NCBI RefSeq assembly: GCF_018336935.1
Contig: NZ_CP068771.1
Span: 3,720,001-3,784,000 of the forward strand
Reading direction: 5' to 3'
Length of the DNA stretch: 64,000 nucleotides
Source: Serratia plymuthica
GTDB lineage: Bacteria > Pseudomonadota > Gammaproteobacteria > Enterobacterales > Enterobacteriaceae
Below, piece after piece: positions 1,594 to 11,464 of the stretch. The notes beneath the pieces are model-generated. The model did no database searches and was not told the DNA's origin. It saw only the letters and a program-made list of their open reading frames with translations. A program made the translations under genes and the position numbers. The stretch's first letter is position 1. Every line of letters starts with the position of its first letter.

Positions 1594-4500
1594 ATGGTAT
1601 CTGGGATGGAAAGTAAACGTAGAGGAGACAAGCCTGTTCAGGCGGCCTTTGGCTGGCCTGAAATTGGCGTGAATCGCGCGCAATGGAGCGCAGTGCTTTT
1701 ATGTCTGGCGGCGATCGGCGGAGCGCAGGCTGCACCCTATGTCGAGAGCGGCAGGCAGGGCGATCCGGCCAGTTGGCGCAGTAGCGAATTCAACGCTGAA
1801 TGGGGCCTGGGGGCGATCCATGCCGATCAGGCCTACGCCGCCGGTTATACTGGAAAAGGCGTTAAGCTCGGTATTTTCGATCAGCCGGTATATGCCCAAC
1901 ATCCGGAGTTTGCCAGCCAGGGCAAGGTGATCAACCTGGTCACGACCGGCATCCGCGAGTACACCGATCCTTATATCCCGGTGAAGAAAGGCGACGCATT
2001 CCGTTATGACGGCACGCCGAGCGTGGATTCAGACGGCACGCTCGGTTCACATGGCACCCATGTAGGCGGTATTGCAGCCGGCAACCGCGATGGCGGCGAA
2101 ATGCACGGCGTGGCGTTCAATGCGCAAATCATCAGCGCGGAAAACGGTGACCCGGGGCCGGAAGACGGCATCATTCTCGGCAACGACGGCGCGGTATACC
2201 AAGCCGGTTGGGATGCGTTGATCGCCAGCGGTGCGCGCATCATCAATAACAGCTGGGGTATCGGCATCACCGAGAAGTTCGATGAGGGGGGCAAGGATCC
2301 GGCTTACCCTCATTTCACTCTCGCCGACGCGCAGAAACAGTTCGATCAAATCAAACAGATATTGGGCACCAAAGCCGGCGGTGCCTATCAGGGCGCTATC
2401 GATGCGGCGCGCAGCGGCATCGTCACCATTTTTGCCGCCGGTAATGACTACAACCTGAATAACCCGGATGCAATGGCCGGCCTGGCCTATTTTGTGCCGG
2501 AGATTGCCCCCAACTGGCTTTCCGTCGCCAGCCTGCAAGATCCGAACAACAGCGGCGATTACAGCATCAGCAGCTTCTCTTCACGCTGCGGTTACACCGC
2601 CAGCTTCTGCGTTGCCGCGCCGGGCAGCAAAGTCTACAGCTCGATCATCGAAGGCAACAGCCTGGAGAATCTGACCACGGGTTACGCTAAATACAGCGGC
2701 ACCTCGATGGCGGCGCCGCACGTGGCCGGCAGCATTGCGGTGCTGATGGAGCGCTTCCCGTACATGACCGGCGCGCAGGTAGCTTCGGTACTGAAGACCA
2801 CCACCGTCGATATGGGCGCGCCGGGTATCGATGCGCTGTACGGCTGGGGGATGATCGATCTGGGCAAAGCGATTCGCGGTCCTGGCATGTTCGTCACCGA
2901 ACAGGACATTCCGGAGGAGTTTCGCGTCAGTGGTGCCTATGGTCCCGAGCAGTTTGTGGTGAATCTGCCGGGCATCGGCGCGGTACTGGACAAGGGCAAA
3001 CCGACTGAGCGGGTATGCGACGATGTTCACTGCGGGCTGGACGTCTGGAGCAATGCTATCTCCGGCCACGGCGGCCTGACCAAGCAGGGTATTGGCACCT
3101 TGGTACTGACCGGTGCCAACACCTACGCCGGCCCGACGCTGGTTAACGAGGGTCTGCTGGCTATCAACGGTTCGGTCACCTCGGCGGTGACGGTGCAGAA
3201 CGCCGGTATTCTGGGCGGCTCCGGCAGCGTCGGTTCGTTGACCGCCCGCCGTGGCGGCACCGTAGCGCCGGGCAACTCGATCGGCACGCTCAATGTGGCC
3301 AACAACGTCAGCTTCGAGTCGGGTTCGCGCTATGCGGTGGAAGTCGCGCCGAACGGCCAGAGCGATCGGATCCACAGCGGCGGAGCGGCGACGATCGGCG
3401 GCGGTGAGGTGGCGGTCTCGCTGGAGAACAGCCCTAATCTGTTATCGCAGAGCGAAGTGCGCAGCCTGCTCGGCCGGCAGTACAGCATTCTGACGGCGGA
3501 TCAGGGCGTCAGCGGGCAGTTTGACTCGGTGGCACCGAATTATCTGTTCCTGGGCACCGGGCTGAGTTATCAGCCTAATCAGGTGACGCTGAACGTGGGC
3601 CGCAACGACACCCGTTTCGCCAGCGTGGCGAAAACGCAGAACGAGCGTGCGGTGGCGGCGGCGGCGGATGCGCTGGTGGCGGGTAACCCGGTGTACGAGA
3701 GCCTCCTCAGCGCCGGTTCGGCGGGGGAAGCGCGGCAGGCGTTCCGTCAGCTGTCGGGGCAGATCCACGCGGATATCGCCTCGGCGCAGGTCAACGACAG
3801 CCGCTACCTGCGTGAGGCGCTCAACGGCCGCCTGCGGCAGGCGGAAGGGCTGGCGACCTCGCCGGACATCAAGGCCGATGAAGGCGGTGCCTGGGCGCAG
3901 CTGCTGGGCGCCTGGGACCACGCATCGGGGGATGCCAACGCCACCGGCTACCAGGCCTCGACCTACGGTGTGCTGCTGGGGCTGGACGCGGCGCTGGCTG
4001 ACGACGGGCGGTTAGGGGTTGCGACCGGCTATACCCGCACCTCGCTGGACGGCGGTTACGGTTCGAACGCCGACAGCGACAACTATCACCTGGCGGTGTA
4101 CGGCGGCAAGCAGTTCGGCGAGCTGGCGCTGCGCGCCGGCGGCGCCTACACCTGGCACCGCATCGATACCTCGCGCTCGGTCAATTACGGTGCGCAGTCG
4201 GACCGCGAAACCGCGAAGTACAGTGCGCGTACTGAGCAGGTGTTCGCCGAAGCGGGTTACAGCGTGAAGGCCGGTTGGGTGAACCTGGAGCCGTTCGCCA
4301 ACCTGGCGTACATCAACTTCCAGAACAACGGCATCGCTGAAGACGGCGGTGCGGCGGCACTGCATGGCGACAAACAGCACACCGACGCCACCGTCTCGAC
4401 GTTGGGGTTGCGCGCCGATACCGAATGGCAGGCGACGAAAGCCACCTCGGTGGCGCTGCGCAGCGAACTGGGTTGGCAGCATCAGTACGGCGATCTGGAT

Positions 4501-4704
4501 CGCGGCACCGGATTGCGCTTCAACGGCGGCGGCTCGCCATTCGTGGTGAACAGCGTGTCGGCATCGCGTGACGGTGCGGTGCTGAAGGCCAGCGCGGAAG
4601 TGGCGGTGAACAAAAACGCCACGCTGTCGCTGGGCTATGGTGGCCTGCTGTCGCAAAACCATCAGGACAACAGCGTCAACGCCGGTTTTACCTGGCATTT
4701 CTGA
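1594..4704 (+). CDS. Subtilisin-like autotransporter serine protease, copy 1
   Basis: A type V secreted protease of 1036 residues. A signal peptide with a long n-region ends at about residue 46 (GGAQA/APY). The S8 peptidase domain follows, with catalytic Asp96 (GIFDQP), His153 (SHGTHVGG), oxyanion Asn284 (AAGND) and Ser371 (GTSMAAPH). A passenger-associated repeat (TLVLTGANTYAG) starts near residue 500. The C-terminal beta-barrel covers about the last 270 residues and ends in a terminal Phe. The start could be ATG 1594 or ATG 1606; neither has a strong ribosome site. It is followed by a paralogue after a 69-bp gap holding a terminator. S. marcescens Ssp and its tandem homologues Ssp-h1/Ssp-h2 have this architecture (from memory). 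From residue 490 on it is nearly identical to copy 2. Confidence 0.95.
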   Translation: MVSGMESKRRGDKPVQAAFGWPEIGVNRAQWSAVLLCLAAIGGAQAAPYVESGRQGDPASWRSSEFNAEWGLGAIHADQAYAAGYTGKGVKLGIFDQPVYAQHPEFASQGKVINLVTTGIREYTDPYIPVKKGDAFRYDGTPSVDSDGTLGSHGTHVGGIAAGNRDGGEMHGVAFNAQIISAENGDPGPEDGIILGNDGAVYQAGWDALIASGARIINNSWGIGITEKFDEGGKDPAYPHFTLADAQKQFDQIKQILGTKAGGAYQGAIDAARSGIVTIFAAGNDYNLNNPDAMAGLAYFVPEIAPNWLSVASLQDPNNSGDYSISSFSSRCGYTASFCVAAPGSKVYSSIIEGNSLENLTTGYAKYSGTSMAAPHVAGSIAVLMERFPYMTGAQVASVLKTTTVDMGAPGIDALYGWGMIDLGKAIRGPGMFVTEQDIPEEFRVSGAYGPEQFVVNLPGIGAVLDKGKPTERVCDDVHCGLDVWSNAISGHGGLTKQGIGTLVLTGANTYAGPTLVNEGLLAINGSVTSAVTVQNAGILGGSGSVGSLTARRGGTVAPGNSIGTLNVANNVSFESGSRYAVEVAPNGQSDRIHSGGAATIGGGEVAVSLENSPNLLSQSEVRSLLGRQYSILTADQGVSGQFDSVAPNYLFLGTGLSYQPNQVTLNVGRNDTRFASVAKTQNERAVAAAADALVAGNPVYESLLSAGSAGEARQAFRQLSGQIHADIASAQVNDSRYLREALNGRLRQAEGLATSPDIKADEGGAWAQLLGAWDHASGDANATGYQASTYGVLLGLDAALADDGRLGVATGYTRTSLDGGYGSNADSDNYHLAVYGGKQFGELALRAGGAYTWHRIDTSRSVNYGAQSDRETAKYSARTEQVFAEAGYSVKAGWVNLEPFANLAYINFQNNGIAEDGGAAALHGDKQHTDATVSTLGLRADTEWQATKATSVALRSELGWQHQYGDLDRGTGLRFNGGGSPFVVNSVSASRDGAVLKASAEVAVNKNATLSLGYGGLLSQNHQDNSVNAGFTWHF
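3061..4704 (+). repeat. 1.64-kb direct repeat, first copy (autotransporter module)
   Basis: This segment matches 6229-7872 without any length change, at a constant offset of 3168 bp. It covers the end of the passenger and the whole beta-barrel. I could find no base difference between 3386 and 4190; scattered differences lie at both flanks. Confidence 0.95.
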
Positions 4705-4727
4705 TCTTAAAAAAACAAACGGCACAG

Positions 4728-4749
4728 CCGCCCCGTCTGGGGCGGTTTT
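4728..4749 (+). terminator. Terminator between the tandem proteases
   Basis: CCGCCCC and GGGGCGG form a perfect 7-bp stem around GTCT, followed by TTTTA. The short T tract may permit read-through into copy 2, which starts 25 bases later. Confidence 0.7.
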
Positions 4750-4773
4750 ACGTAAAACAAAAAGGATAAGGGA

Positions 4774-7872
<3,099 letters not shown>

Positions 7873-7891
7873 CGACCTTAGCCTGAAAGAT

Positions 7892-7919
7892 ACGGGGTCA
7901 GCTTGCTGGCCCCGTTTTT
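7892..7919 (+). terminator. Terminator after protease copy 2
   Basis: CGGGGTCAGC pairs with GCTGGCCCCG (one G-T wobble) and is followed by TTTTT. Confidence 0.85.
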
Positions 7920-7996
7920 ATTGGGGCCGGGTAACAGTGACGGCAAGGGAAGCTGTCCGTATGATGCATCGCGCCGTTTGGCGAGAAAACGGCAAT

Positions 7997-8026
7997 AAAA
8001 AACCGAGACCCTTGCGGATCCCGGTT
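7997..8026 (-). terminator. Intrinsic terminator pointing left, no obvious gene
   Basis: The stem pairs 8001-8011 with 8016-8026 around GCAA on the minus strand, followed by TTTTTT. It is well formed, but it has no annotated minus-strand gene to terminate. Confidence 0.7.
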
Positions 8027-8145
8027 CAAAAGTGGGTAAAACAGATTAGCGCTACGGCTCAAATCCCGGTTTGCTTACAAACTGAGTGAATGCAGGCATC
8101 CTTCAGTAGCGGCAATCGGAACTAATTTTCCCTGGTGTTATTATG
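7997..8145 (-). ncRNA. Candidate small RNA, minus strand
   Basis: Read on the minus strand, this stretch ends in a strong intrinsic terminator: an 11-bp stem starting AACCGG with two G-U wobbles, a GCAA tetraloop, and six T. No minus-strand protein gene lies upstream of it; the next gene is on the plus strand. Upstream in the same stretch are several competing stems: CGCTAC/GTAGCG (8050-8055 with 8106-8111), GTTTG/CAAAC (8069-8082) and GCATCC/GAATGC-like arms (8088-8101). The 5' end is a guess. I do not recognise it as any small RNA I can recall. Confidence 0.4.
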
Positions 8146-8206
8146 GTTATTATCAAAAGTGGTTCTAGTATTATTTTTTATAGTGTATTGCTGTATGTGT
8201 CTTTTG

Positions 8207-8235
8207 ATACCATGTTTGACTATAGAACATGGTAT
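8207..8235. promoter_or_regulatory. 10-bp inverted repeat, candidate operator
   Basis: ATACCATGTT and AACATGGTAT are perfect inverted arms separated by 9 bases, about 115 bases upstream of the HTH/receiver gene. The core CATGGTAT occurs again in the next dyad, so this may be an autoregulatory operator. Confidence 0.5.
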
Positions 8236-8347: not shown

Positions 8348-9199
8348 ATGGATAACAATCACCAAAAATTCGATTCGTTGTCGATTGCAAACCGGGTCAG
8401 GGAACTGTTTTTGCATTACGGCATTGGTAAGCGGCAGCATGCAAAAGAGCTTAGCCGTATTCTGGATCTGAGTTTTTCACATGCGCATCGAAAACTGAAA
8501 GGGCAAAGCCCCTGGACGCTGGAACAGATTAACAGCGTAGCTGCTGCATTGGGTGAAACGCCGGCGGCTATCGCGGACATGGGCGCCGAACAGGAGGCAG
8601 CGGCGCAAACTATGGCGCAGGATGCCATCTTTTTTGTGGCGGGTGCGGAAATTGCCTGTGTCGGCCATATCGGCGATGAACTGCCGGCTGGGCGGCAGGC
8701 GGAGTTCGTGGCGCTGAAGCCGGACCAGCAATGGCAGATTTATCGCGCGGACGATGCGCCGTTGGGTAAACGCTTTTGGGTTGAATTGATAGAGATCCGC
8801 CCGAGCCATACCGATGATGAGCGTTTGAGCATTGCGGTGCTGGATGATTCGCACCAGGCGGCGGATGAGCTGGCAAAATACCTCGATGGCCGCGGTTTCA
8901 CGGCGGTGGCATTCTACGACGTCGGCAGTTTTTGCCAGGCGCTGCAACAAAGCCTGTTCGACGGTTATGTGGTCGACTGGCTGATCGGCGAGGAAACGGC
9001 GGATAAATGCATTGAAGCCATCCGCAACTCCGACAACCCGGATGCGCCGGTACTGGTGCTGACCGGCCAGTTGGGCACCGATCAGCGCGAGTCGGAAATC
9101 GCCAAAGCGATGCGTGACTATGACGTGCTCGGCCCCTATGAAAAGCCAGTGCGGCTTCACGTCATCGAAGCTGCCCTGTTGCGGTGCTTTAATCTTTAG
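8348..9199 (+). CDS. BetR-like HTH response regulator
   Basis: A 283-residue cytoplasmic regulator; GAAGGGA precedes the ATG. The N-terminal 80 residues form a Cro/BetR-type HTH (HAKELSRILDLSFSHAHRKL). A middle segment of about 80 residues has no family I recognise. The C-terminal receiver keeps the acidic pair Asp166-Asp167, phospho-acceptor Asp210 (GYVVD) and Lys266 (YEKP). DNA binding at the N-terminus and the receiver at the C-terminus is the reverse of the common order. It converges with the hybrid kinase gene and overlaps its 3' end by 11 bp, and is probably its partner. Two CATGGTAT-core dyads lie upstream. Confidence 0.8.
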   Translation: MDNNHQKFDSLSIANRVRELFLHYGIGKRQHAKELSRILDLSFSHAHRKLKGQSPWTLEQINSVAAALGETPAAIADMGAEQEAAAQTMAQDAIFFVAGAEIACVGHIGDELPAGRQAEFVALKPDQQWQIYRADDAPLGKRFWVELIEIRPSHTDDERLSIAVLDDSHQAADELAKYLDGRGFTAVAFYDVGSFCQALQQSLFDGYVVDWLIGEETADKCIEAIRNSDNPDAPVLVLTGQLGTDQRESEIAKAMRDYDVLGPYEKPVRLHVIEAALLRCFNL

Positions 9200-10973
9200 C
9201 GGTGAACAGCGAGGCCAATGCGTTGGACAGCGCGTCCAACCGCACCGGCTTCATTAAATAGTTATCGAACAGCGCCCGTTGTTCGGCAGACAGTTGTTCC
9301 GAGGGGTAGGCGCTGATGCCGATAATCGGCACCTGGCGGTTGGGGCCGCGGCGGCTACGCAACTGTTTGGCCAGCGCGGCGCCATCGATGCCGGGCATTT
9401 GCAGGTCCAGCAGCAGCGCGTCGTAAGGGCGCCGGAACAGCTTTTGCAGCGCCCGTTCAGGCGAATTGCACAGCTCGTGCCGGTAACCCAGTTTGTCCAA
9501 CAGAGCCGCAAAGGCGTCGCTTACCGACTTATTGTCATCCACCACCAGAATATGCTGCTGCTTCTGCGTCAGGCCGTGGTGCTGCGCCGGTGTTGCGGCC
9601 GATTCCTCTTCATCGCCGATCTCGACAGGGATGCTGACGATAAAGGTGCTGCCTTTCTTGATTTCGCTGTAGACGGTAATGGTGCCGTTGAGCAGCGTCA
9701 CCAACCCATGCACAATCGCCAACCCCATACCGACGCCGCCATACTGCCGGGTGTGCGACTGATCAAGCTGGGTAAAGGGTTTGAATATCTGGTCGAGCAT
9801 CTCTTTTTCGATGCCGATACCGGTGTCGGTGACCTCGATAATCAGCGAACTGCCGGTAGGTTGCCGCCGCAGGCAACTGTGCAGCGTGATGGTGCCGTTT
9901 TCGGTGTATTTGTAGGCGTTGGTCAGCAGGTTGACGATAATCTGCCTGATACGCAGCGGATCGGAATGTATTTGCTGGTGGCCGCACTCAACCTCGCACA
10001 GTAGCGTAACCCGATCTTTCTGGCTCAGCCTGGTGATTTCATTCGCCGTTTCCTCGATCAACCCTTGGGCGTCGAACGGCACTATGCGCAGCTCCATCAT
10101 GCCGCTGTCCAGGTGAGCATAATCGGTCAGGTCCTTCATCTGGCTCTCAACCTGCTGCGCGGCGGTTTCCAGCCGCTGGAAGGTGTCCGCATGTTCGGCC
10201 GACACTTTAGTATTCATCAACACGTCAATGGCGGACATGATGCTTTGCAGCGAGGTACGCAACTCATGGCCGATGGCGCCGAGAAAGGCATTTTTGCTGC
10301 GTGTGGCTTTCTCCGCCTCAATCGCTTTGGCCTGCTGCCGGATGGTCAGGCGCTGCTGGCGCAACACAATCAGGGTGATGGCAATCAGCGCGATCACCGA
10401 GAACATGACGATCACCAGGCCATAAAAAATGATGTGTCGCTTTTCGATATAGTCTTCATAGGCGACAGTACGCTGCTTCACTTCTGCGTGATCGGTCAGG
10501 TTGGCCATCTCAATCGAGTAGGGCTTGATTTGCTTCATGGCCTGAGAAATGTGGGTGAAGTCAATCGTCGGGCTATCCAGCAACGTATCGATCCGATCCA
10601 TTTGCCGGCGCATTTGGGTGACCACTTCAGGATAACCCGGCTCGGCATACAGCGGCTGCGTGGATTCGGACACCGTTTCCAGCACGTAAAAGCGTGAGTA
10701 CAGGATTTCAAATTTAAGCCTGAGATCTTCGCTATCCACCCGCGGCGCATTTTTCTGTTGTTCTACCAGGGTTTCAAATTCAGCCAGCTTGATGGCGAAT
10801 TTTGCGATCGACCAAGAGTAATTTTCCTGAGTGCCGGCAATGGCATACAGCCCTTTCTTTGACAGGGTGGCGCTGTAGTAATACAGCGTTACCGTAGAGG
10901 CAACCAAAAAAAGCGCGGCAAAAATCGCGGGGATCGCCAGCCTGCTGCCGCTTTTAAATCCTTTAAGCTTCAT
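9189..10973 (-). CDS. Hybrid sensor histidine kinase
   Basis: An inner-membrane kinase of 594 residues. Transmembrane helices at about 11-33 and 181-206 flank a periplasmic, mostly helical domain of about 145 residues. The H-box has phospho-acceptor His236 (IGHELRTSL). ATPase boxes follow: N (NLLTNAYKYTENG), G1 (DTGIGIE), F and G2 (GVGMGLAIV). The C-terminal receiver has Asp479-Asp480, Asp523 (LLLDLQMPG) and Lys575. There is no Hpt domain, so phosphate could go back through the His or to a separate Hpt. Its start overlaps the upstream SUOX-fold gene by four bases (ATGA), indicating translational coupling, so that protein is likely part of the input. Confidence 0.92.
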   Translation of the reverse strand: MKLKGFKSGSRLAIPAIFAALFLVASTVTLYYYSATLSKKGLYAIAGTQENYSWSIAKFAIKLAEFETLVEQQKNAPRVDSEDLRLKFEILYSRFYVLETVSESTQPLYAEPGYPEVVTQMRRQMDRIDTLLDSPTIDFTHISQAMKQIKPYSIEMANLTDHAEVKQRTVAYEDYIEKRHIIFYGLVIVMFSVIALIAITLIVLRQQRLTIRQQAKAIEAEKATRSKNAFLGAIGHELRTSLQSIMSAIDVLMNTKVSAEHADTFQRLETAAQQVESQMKDLTDYAHLDSGMMELRIVPFDAQGLIEETANEITRLSQKDRVTLLCEVECGHQQIHSDPLRIRQIIVNLLTNAYKYTENGTITLHSCLRRQPTGSSLIIEVTDTGIGIEKEMLDQIFKPFTQLDQSHTRQYGGVGMGLAIVHGLVTLLNGTITVYSEIKKGSTFIVSIPVEIGDEEESAATPAQHHGLTQKQQHILVVDDNKSVSDAFAALLDKLGYRHELCNSPERALQKLFRRPYDALLLDLQMPGIDGAALAKQLRSRRGPNRQVPIIGISAYPSEQLSAEQRALFDNYLMKPVRLDALSNALASLFTAKD

Positions 10974-11464
10974 TTAATTGCAATCCTGTCCACTTGCCAG
11001 ATAAAGCGCGAGTTGTAGAGTGGGGAATTTAACTCAGGCCCTGCGGCATCCCTTGGATAAACCAAAAACAGCGGTCCGAAGTTTCTGATCTTCAGCATTT
11101 CGCCGTCCATCTTGTAGGCCAAAATTATATGGTATTTCTCGACGTCGGACAGCGGCACGTCGATGTAATAATCGTTCAGCGCATAAAACGTCAGCGTGCT
11201 GCCTTTGGCCCCCACGCGCGCCAGAATATCCGCCACGGCCACCCCTTCGAATTTTCTTTGCGGCGTCCAGGAGGTTGAGGTGGTGATGCTGTGCACCGGC
11301 ATTGCCAACAGTTGCTTATCGGTAAACAGATAGCTTTTTTTTGCCGGGTCGGTGGCATTTTCGATATTGCCTGTCACTTCCAGAGTGAAACTTAGCGCGC
11401 TGGATTGAACGATGACCAGCGCAAAAAATGCCCACGCGGCGTTTTTAAAAAAAGTGAACAGCAT
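10970..11464 (-). CDS. Periplasmic SUOX-fold (molybdopterin oxidoreductase-like) protein, no Cys
   Basis: A 164-residue exported protein; the signal peptide ends at about residue 25 (SSALS/FTL). The sequence around TTSTSWTP, FEGVAVADILARVG and DGEMLKIRNFGPLFLVYPRD follows the sulfite-oxidase/YedY-type Moco domain. That family binds the cofactor through a Cys, but this protein contains no cysteine at all, and Ser/Thr stand where Cys would be expected. It probably does not hold molybdopterin as an enzyme and may be a ligand-sensing fold for the kinase encoded downstream. A GGAG ribosome site precedes the ATG. The function is inferred only. Confidence 0.72.
   Translation of the reverse strand: MLFTFFKNAAWAFFALVIVQSSALSFTLEVTGNIENATDPAKKSYLFTDKQLLAMPVHSITTSTSWTPQRKFEGVAVADILARVGAKGSTLTFYALNDYYIDVPLSDVEKYHIILAYKMDGEMLKIRNFGPLFLVYPRDAAGPELNSPLYNSRFIWQVDRIAIK

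What the first reader, a model, noticed from the sequence alone, without database searches (positions are those of the whole stretch)
8348..11464. Three-gene signalling module with a cofactor-less SUOX-fold partner
A four-base ATGA overlap couples a small periplasmic SUOX-fold protein to a hybrid histidine kinase, and the convergent gene encodes a HTH-first, receiver-last regulator. The SUOX protein has no cysteine, so it cannot bind Moco in the usual way. This suggests a redox-enzyme fold reused as a ligand sensor for a phosphorelay, which I do not know as a described system.
Basis: partly seen in the sequence, partly recalled or inferred. Interest (0 to 1): 0.72.

Follow-up and report, generated by a model that had tools for sequence, protein, structure and literature searches.

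The report
Pterin-sensor phosphorelay behind Serratia lifestyle switch
Three neighbouring Serratia genes form a signalling switch whose outer sensor looks like a known protein that binds vitamin-related molecules called pterins, which suggests a testable candidate for the unknown signal of a recently described lifestyle switch.

Summary
In detail: betR (8348-9199, +) converges on a hybrid kinase (9189-10973, -) joined by an ATGA overlap to a cysteine-free SUOX-fold protein (10970-11464, -). It is not undescribed. It matches the Serratia BetR-Reg2-Reg1 (EepR-EepS) lifestyle switch, published with its signal unknown. The SUOX protein is a PruR, a known periplasmic pterin-binding family, by sequence, fold and pocket residues. 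PruR-kinase pairs (PruR-DTB) are published. My searches found no paper joining the two. Seen here: BetR, kinase and PruR together in 54 of 80 BetR loci, 26 of them Serratia; in the family sample BetR accompanies 10 of 10 PruR-kinase pairs and 0 of 9 PruR-GGDEF pairs; a pteridine-reductase-like gene near 11 of 54 such loci and none of 26 BetR loci without PruR; related modules beside transfer genes on 8 of 11 plasmids read. Against: the WX7E motif is not met, BetR and PruR also occur apart, and pterin binding is untested. Most likely mechanism: periplasmic reduced pterin, PruR, kinase, BetR.

The parts
8348..9199 (+). betR (eepR) orthologue: BetR-type HTH domain (residues 10-152) then receiver domain; DNA-binding response regulator
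   Evidence: receiver residues D166, D210, T239, K266 the same in 16 of 16 aligned BetR
9189..10973 (-). reg2 (eepS) orthologue: membrane hybrid histidine kinase with helical extracytoplasmic domain, H236, HATPase, receiver (DLQMP from 523)
   Evidence: (best NCBIfam model TorS, 272.9 bits, under its cut-off of 676.5)
10970..11464 (-). reg1: PruR-type periplasmic protein (SUOX fold, W66 at the Moco-Cys site; N97, Y99, W156 in the expected pterin pocket)
10970..10973 (-). ATGA stop/start overlap between reg1 and reg2
9189..9199 (.). 11-base overlap of the convergent 3' ends of betR and reg2; 34 of 54 trio loci have convergent, overlapping ends
8207..8235 (.). Perfect inverted repeat, 10-base arms around 9 bases, upstream of betR; candidate operator (inferred). 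In 16 other Serratia upstream regions the left arm is nearly the same, the right arm looser
   Evidence: the one place in the genome at up to 3 mismatches

Best explanation
The locus is a periplasmic pterin-sensing phosphorelay. A small reduced pterin (tetrahydromonapterin is the best guess, made by FolX/FolM and released outside) binds Reg1, a PruR. Reg1 with its ligand docks on the helical periplasmic domain of Reg2 and changes its kinase/phosphatase balance. Reg2 passes phosphate to the receiver of BetR, which controls transcription of the lifestyle-switch genes and perhaps its own gene through the inverted repeat at 8207-8235. Shown here: gene arrangement, PruR identity by sequence and fold, pocket residues, conserved linkage, pteridine-reductase-like genes linked in relatives. 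Inferred: ligand, docking, direction of the effect, direct His-to-BetR transfer, operator.
For: PDB sequence search: four of five hits are solved PruR-type proteins, E 1.4e-27 to 3.4e-21; the fifth (E 0.62) looks like chance. Model pLDDT 91.5; the seven best Foldseek rows are PruR entries (7kos rmsd 1.0, TMq 0.79), ahead of sulfite oxidases. The review names Tyr104, Trp160 and Asn102 of A. tumefaciens PruR; placed on the 7kos alignment (numbering offset worked out by me) these are Y99, W156 and N97 here; W66 stands at the Cys site. Trio in 54 of 80 BetR loci, 26 Serratia and 28 others. Family sample: BetR with 10 of 10 PruR-kinase pairs, 0 of 9 PruR-GGDEF pairs (GGDEF by motif). Pteridine-reductase-like SDR gene near 11 of 54 trio loci, 0 of 26 BetR loci without PruR (8 of the 11 built the model; 16 of the 26 controls are longer than 12 kb). 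Of eight such SDRs scanned, three have PRK09135 'pteridine reductase' and five PRK09134 'SDR' as best NCBIfam model, all under the cut-offs; nearest structures include FolM and pteridine reductases. Own genome encodes FolM (65% identity to E. coli) and FolX (84%). Paralogue module C has a kinase without receiver, and the five Hpt matches lie in large open frames, which favours direct transfer to BetR.
Against: WX7E, kept in the vast majority of PruR partners per the review, is not met: W54 is there but +8 is Lys; 4 of 36 BetR-linked kinase N-termini have Glu at that column. No pterin binding, docking or phosphotransfer was measured. BetR and PruR also occur apart: of nine strong PruR matches outside the own genome in the class sample, six sit beside a kinase and three beside a GGDEF protein, none with BetR; the one BetR match of that sample outside the own genome (G055) has no PruR within the 12 kb read; 26 of 80 BetR loci lack PruR (ten of them shorter than 12 kb, one partly masked). 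The fold match of the kinase's periplasmic part is a generic helical bundle. The linked reductase is seen only in Burkholderiales, not beside a Serratia module; for one of two tested the best PDB hit is named 3-oxoacyl-ACP reductase.
Confidence: 0.74

Rival explanations
1. Reg1 is a PruR-fold protein that senses something other than a free pterin (another small molecule, an envelope redox or conformational state) and still drives Reg2-BetR.
For: WX7E not met in the window kinase, so the docking face may differ from described PruR partners; paralogue C has Trp to Phe and Asn to Asp; the BetR paper allows a condition-sensitive conformational change.
Against: Pocket residues N97, Y99, W156 kept; linked pteridine-reductase-like genes in relatives.
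Confidence: 0.18
2. A variant of the best explanation: Reg2 signals mainly through its own receiver and an Hpt protein, with BetR last in a four-step relay (its odds lie inside those of the best explanation and of the first rival).
For: Reg2 has a receiver with DLQMP; the BetR paper leaves this route open.
Against: Paralogue C lacks the receiver yet keeps the trio; the five Hpt matches in the genome lie in open frames of 691-1073 aa.
Confidence: 0.25
3. Reg1 is a genuine Moco oxidoreductase and the kinase reads its activity.
For: Pfam names the domain Oxidored_molyb.
Against: No Cys at all; the enzymes rank behind PruR in fold and are not among the PDB sequence hits; the review says PruR's site likely cannot take Moco.
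Confidence: 0.02

Closest known systems
BetR-Reg1-Reg2 / EepR-EepS of Serratia marcescens (PMC7618870; abstract, passages, sections 8 and 9 and part 1 of section 14 seen)
   Same: Same gene families, called genus-core and always together; S. marcescens loci L100 and L101 show the same trio and layout, BetR 84% identical.
   Different: Signal unknown there; pterin, SUOX, Moco, molybdopterin, PruR, oxidoreductase and folate each occur 0 times in the held text (figures and supplements not seen). The PruR identity is added here. Not compared with the paper's own strain sequences.
PruR-DTB (DcpA-TorS-BaeS) pairs (PMC13259868; abstract, passages and sections 7, 8, 9 seen)
   Same: pruR directly before a membrane kinase, here most like TorS, with receiver.
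   Different: Lys where WX7E has Glu; coupled to a BetR regulator. Serratia, BetR, EepR, response regulator and plasmid occur 0 times in the held review text.
PruA-PruR-DcpA of Agrobacterium tumefaciens (from the same review; primary paper not held)
   Same: Same periplasmic sensor family; a pteridine reductase supplies the ligand.
   Different: Output there is c-di-GMP; here a kinase and a DNA-binding regulator.
MsrP/YedY and sulfite oxidases
   Same: SUOX fold.
   Different: They hold Moco through a Cys (review); this protein has none.

Membership tests
PruR pterin-binding proteins | Sequence and fold closest to solved PruR | tested here: met
PruR pterin-binding proteins | Moco-ligating Cys replaced by Trp | tested here: met
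   W66, no Cys; Trp in 48 and Phe in 4 of 52 aligned sequences
PruR pterin-binding proteins | Pocket Tyr104, Trp160 and Asn102 (or Asp) | tested here: met
   Y99, W156, N97; the numbering offset is my inference
PruR pterin-binding proteins | Size about 170 aa | tested here: met
   164 aa
PruR pterin-binding proteins | N-terminal secretion signal | tested here: inconclusive
   Helix 3-17 in the model at low confidence; no signal-peptide program was run
PruR pterin-binding proteins | Binds reduced pterin | not testable with these tools
   Needs purified protein
PruR-DTB pairs | pruR directly upstream of and coupled to the kinase gene | tested here: met
   ATGA overlap
PruR-DTB pairs | Kinase most like TorS/BaeS | tested here: met
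   Best NCBIfam model TorS (E 6e-81), under its cut-off
PruR-DTB pairs | WX7E in the periplasmic domain (vast majority of pairs) | tested here: not met
   W54, but Lys at +8. So it is said to work like a DTB pair, not filed as a strict member
BetR-Reg1-Reg2 / EepRS | BetR-family regulator, transmembrane kinase and periplasmic protein encoded together in Serratia | tested here: met
BetR-Reg1-Reg2 / EepRS | Controls T6SS, motility, antibiotics | not testable with these tools
   Published for S. marcescens (abstract); not tested for this strain
Moco SUOX-family enzymes | Conserved Cys ligating Mo | tested here: not met

The most novel reading that the evidence does not exclude
PruR-kinase-BetR modules are a general pterin-gated switch for social and mobile behaviour: on chromosomes they set the lifestyle, and on conjugative plasmids the same module has been placed repeatedly beside or at the head of the transfer genes, so that periplasmic pterins would gate conjugation. 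In 8 of 11 plasmid loci read, transfer genes lie in the stretch around the module (in one case around BetR alone), with F, I and T types among them; on two F-type plasmids the module lies between traM and traA. This rests on position only.
Probability: 0.4. Interest if true: 0.78.

Novelty: new variant of a known kind. Interest (0 to 1): 0.58.

Why it matters
The signal of the Serratia BetR switch, which controls T6SS activity, motility, adhesion and antibiotics and is often lost in clinical isolates, is stated as unknown in the 2025 paper. Recognising Reg1 as a PruR gives a named candidate ligand class and a direct test. It would also join pterin signalling, shown so far in the review for a c-di-GMP output, to a phosphorelay with a DNA-binding output, and it points to the same module beside transfer genes on conjugative plasmids.

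Tried and rejected
Moco enzyme: rejected (no Cys, fold ranking). Chance neighbourhood: rejected (54 of 80 BetR loci; strong PruR matches are rare, 9 with E below 1e-15 outside the own genome in 369 genomes).

Rows dropped: in the family sample five PruR matches with E 1.1e-5 to 3.6e-4 were left out of the 19 strong ones; in the class sample 17 weaker than 1e-15 were left out of the nine. A5 holds 52 of 80 and A6 36 of 53 candidate sequences (plus the window), chosen by me for diversity. The 11 plasmid loci were picked by me: 3 from the best 25 rows, 8 from 45 rows spread over the 470; Shigella and Salmonella rows were passed over; L185 and L194 look like one lineage.

Full report
What is there. 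The three ORFs and the ATGA overlap are as described. The window is bases 3720001-3784000 of a single-contig 5.46 Mb genome. The closest BetR proteins in the GTDB scan are from Serratia inhibens (98%) and S. plymuthica (97%), so the source is very probably a Serratia. Pfam gives BetR plus receiver, HisKA-HATPase-receiver, and Oxidored_molyb.

Literature. PMC7618870 (Cell Host Microbe 2025; abstract, passages, sections 8 and 9 and part 1 of section 14 seen) describes reg1, reg2 and betR as a genus-core system that controls T6SS, motility, adhesion and antibiotics, equal to EepR-EepS, with unknown signal and a predicted Reg1-Reg2 contact. Pterin, SUOX, Moco, molybdopterin, PruR, oxidoreductase and folate occur 0 times in the held text. 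PMC13259868 (Biochem Soc Trans 2026; abstract, passages, sections 7, 8, 9 seen) describes PruR, a SUOX-fold periplasmic pterin binder in which Trp replaces the Moco Cys, and its partners: DcpA (c-di-GMP) or DTB kinases. Serratia, BetR and EepR occur 0 times there. Searches for papers with BetR, histidine kinase and pterin, monapterin and Serratia, and BetR, conjugative, plasmid and histidine kinase gave 0. The primary PruR paper and the two EepR papers are not held, and supplements were not open to me, so a link made there cannot be excluded.

Reg1 is a PruR. Four of five PDB hits are solved PruR-type proteins; the AlphaFold2 model (pLDDT 91.5) matches 7kos at rmsd 1.0 over 138 columns, ahead of the SUOX enzymes listed. 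Tyr104, Trp160 and Asn102 of A. tumefaciens PruR correspond to Y99, W156 and N97 (offset inferred). In 52 aligned sequences, the window's included, position 66 is W in 48 and F in 4, position 99 Y in 47 and F in 5, position 156 W in 49 and F in 3, position 97 D in 32 and N in 20.

The neighbourhood is conserved. In 149 genomes of the family sample there are 11 BetR matches in 8 genomes; 10 have PruR within 2.5 kb, and the contig of the eleventh (G448) ends just after its convergent kinase. Of 19 strong PruR matches there, three of them the own genome's, 10 are with kinase and BetR (one, G425, with PruR and kinase in pieces) and 9 with a GGDEF-motif protein and no BetR. In the GTDB contig scan with a BetR alignment (best 80 loci kept of 96), 54 carry PruR within 5 kb: 26 Serratia and 28 others, among them Burkholderia, Paraburkholderia, Trinickia, Mycetohabitans, Herbaspirillum, Ottowia, Rugamonas, Aquabacterium, Variovorax, Ramlibacter, Xenophilus, Rhizobium, Kluyvera and Pseudocitrobacter. 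The loci are not independent. In 50 of 54 BetR and kinase are convergent, and in 34 their ends overlap. Of the 26 without PruR, 16 are longer than 12 kb; L147, L155 and L163 end within 1.3 kb downstream, L126 is partly masked, and several of those viewed have no kinase nearby.

Limits of the linkage. In the class sample of 369 genomes BetR occurs in 2 and PruR-like matches at E up to 1e-3 in 24. Nine matches outside the own genome are stronger than 1e-15: six lie beside a kinase, three beside a GGDEF protein, none with BetR. The single BetR match outside the own genome (G055, E 1.3e-6) has no PruR in the 12 kb read. So BetR is one output of PruR kinases, and BetR can occur without PruR.

Pteridine reductase. 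A short-chain dehydrogenase lies beside the module in 11 of 54 trio loci, all Burkholderiales, and in 0 of 26 others. The search model was built from 8 of the 11, so those match by construction; L139, L141 and L167 were found with it. Ten lie within 1 kb of the BetR-PruR span; the eleventh (L121) directly follows its kinase. Of eight scanned, five have PRK09134 (SDR family oxidoreductase) and three PRK09135 (pteridine reductase) as best NCBIfam model, all below the cut-offs. In the PDB, L151's best hits are pteridine reductases; L121's best is named 3-oxoacyl-ACP reductase, then FolM, then pteridine reductases. I take this as independent context for a pterin ligand. The window's own genome has FolM and FolX elsewhere.

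Three modules in one genome. Besides the window (A) there are module B at about 130-135 kb (BetR, a glycosyltransferase-9-like protein, PruR and hybrid kinase in one direction, next to TraI_2, UvrD-like, N6-methylase and integrase genes) and module C at about 3.226-3.228 Mb (BetR convergent with a kinase without receiver, then PruR with W to F and N to D). Module C suggests that the kinase's receiver is dispensable, which favours direct transfer to BetR; the genome's five Hpt matches are in large open frames.

What does not fit. WX7E is not met: Lys in the window, Arg in B; Glu at that column in 4 of 36 BetR-linked kinase N-termini. Among the nine PruR-GGDEF partners of the family sample, W with E at +8 is seen in 7, Q in L074 and G in L075. 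I therefore say that the pair works like PruR-DTB and do not file Reg2 as a strict member.

Regulation. A perfect inverted repeat at 8207-8235 lies in a block that recurs in the 16 other Serratia upstream regions aligned, with the right arm looser, and not in the one Burkholderia region. It is unique in the genome at up to 3 mismatches. Negative autoregulation by BetR is published; that this is its operator is a guess.

Plasmids. Relatives of the module-B BetR occur on 470 of 72,556 plasmid records, 389 of them typed conjugative, and of the module-B PruR on 620, 387 conjugative. I read 11 of the 470: nine have BetR, PruR and kinase in the stretch (L190's kinase in pieces), L193 has BetR and kinase with a PruR-like gene cut by the stretch end, and L187 has BetR but no PruR or kinase found, with a recombinase gene further on. 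In eight of 11 transfer genes lie within the stretch; in L186, L191 and L193 none is annotated there. What share of all plasmids in the collection is conjugative was not determined. This is the boldest reading and rests on position only.

Noticed in passing
L007 (own genome C1:128000-140000), 2497-6543: Second PruR-kinase-BetR module with a glycosyltransferase-9-like gene, next to TraI_2, UvrD-like helicase, N6-methylase and integrase genes: looks like part of a mobile element.
   Followed up: partly
L008 (own genome C1:3220000-3233000), 5674-8218: Third module, near an ORF that I recognise as RpoC (not searched): kinase without receiver, PruR with W to F and N to D in the pocket; possibly a different pterin.
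   Followed up: partly
L184, L185, L187-L190, L192, L194 (plasmid records): Module, or BetR alone in L187, beside conjugation genes on plasmids of Klebsiella, Enterobacter, E. coli, Erwinia and Pantoea.
   Followed up: partly
L117, L120, L121, L127, L134, L137, L139, L141, L151, L162, L167: Pteridine-reductase-like SDR gene beside the trio in Burkholderiales.
   Followed up: yes
L007, L110, L112, L113, L115, L118, L123, L125, L131, L132, L157: Glycosyltransferase-9-like protein family of 327-362 aa recurring in or beside the module in 11 of the 56 loci clustered; role unknown.
   Followed up: partly
L084, L102, L114, L127, L190: Copies of BetR, PruR or kinase that appear in pieces; described only.
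   Followed up: no
window 1594-4704 and 4774-7872: Two neighbouring large ORFs with near-identical C-terminal halves next to betR; I recognise them as autotransporter-like proteases (not searched).
   Followed up: no
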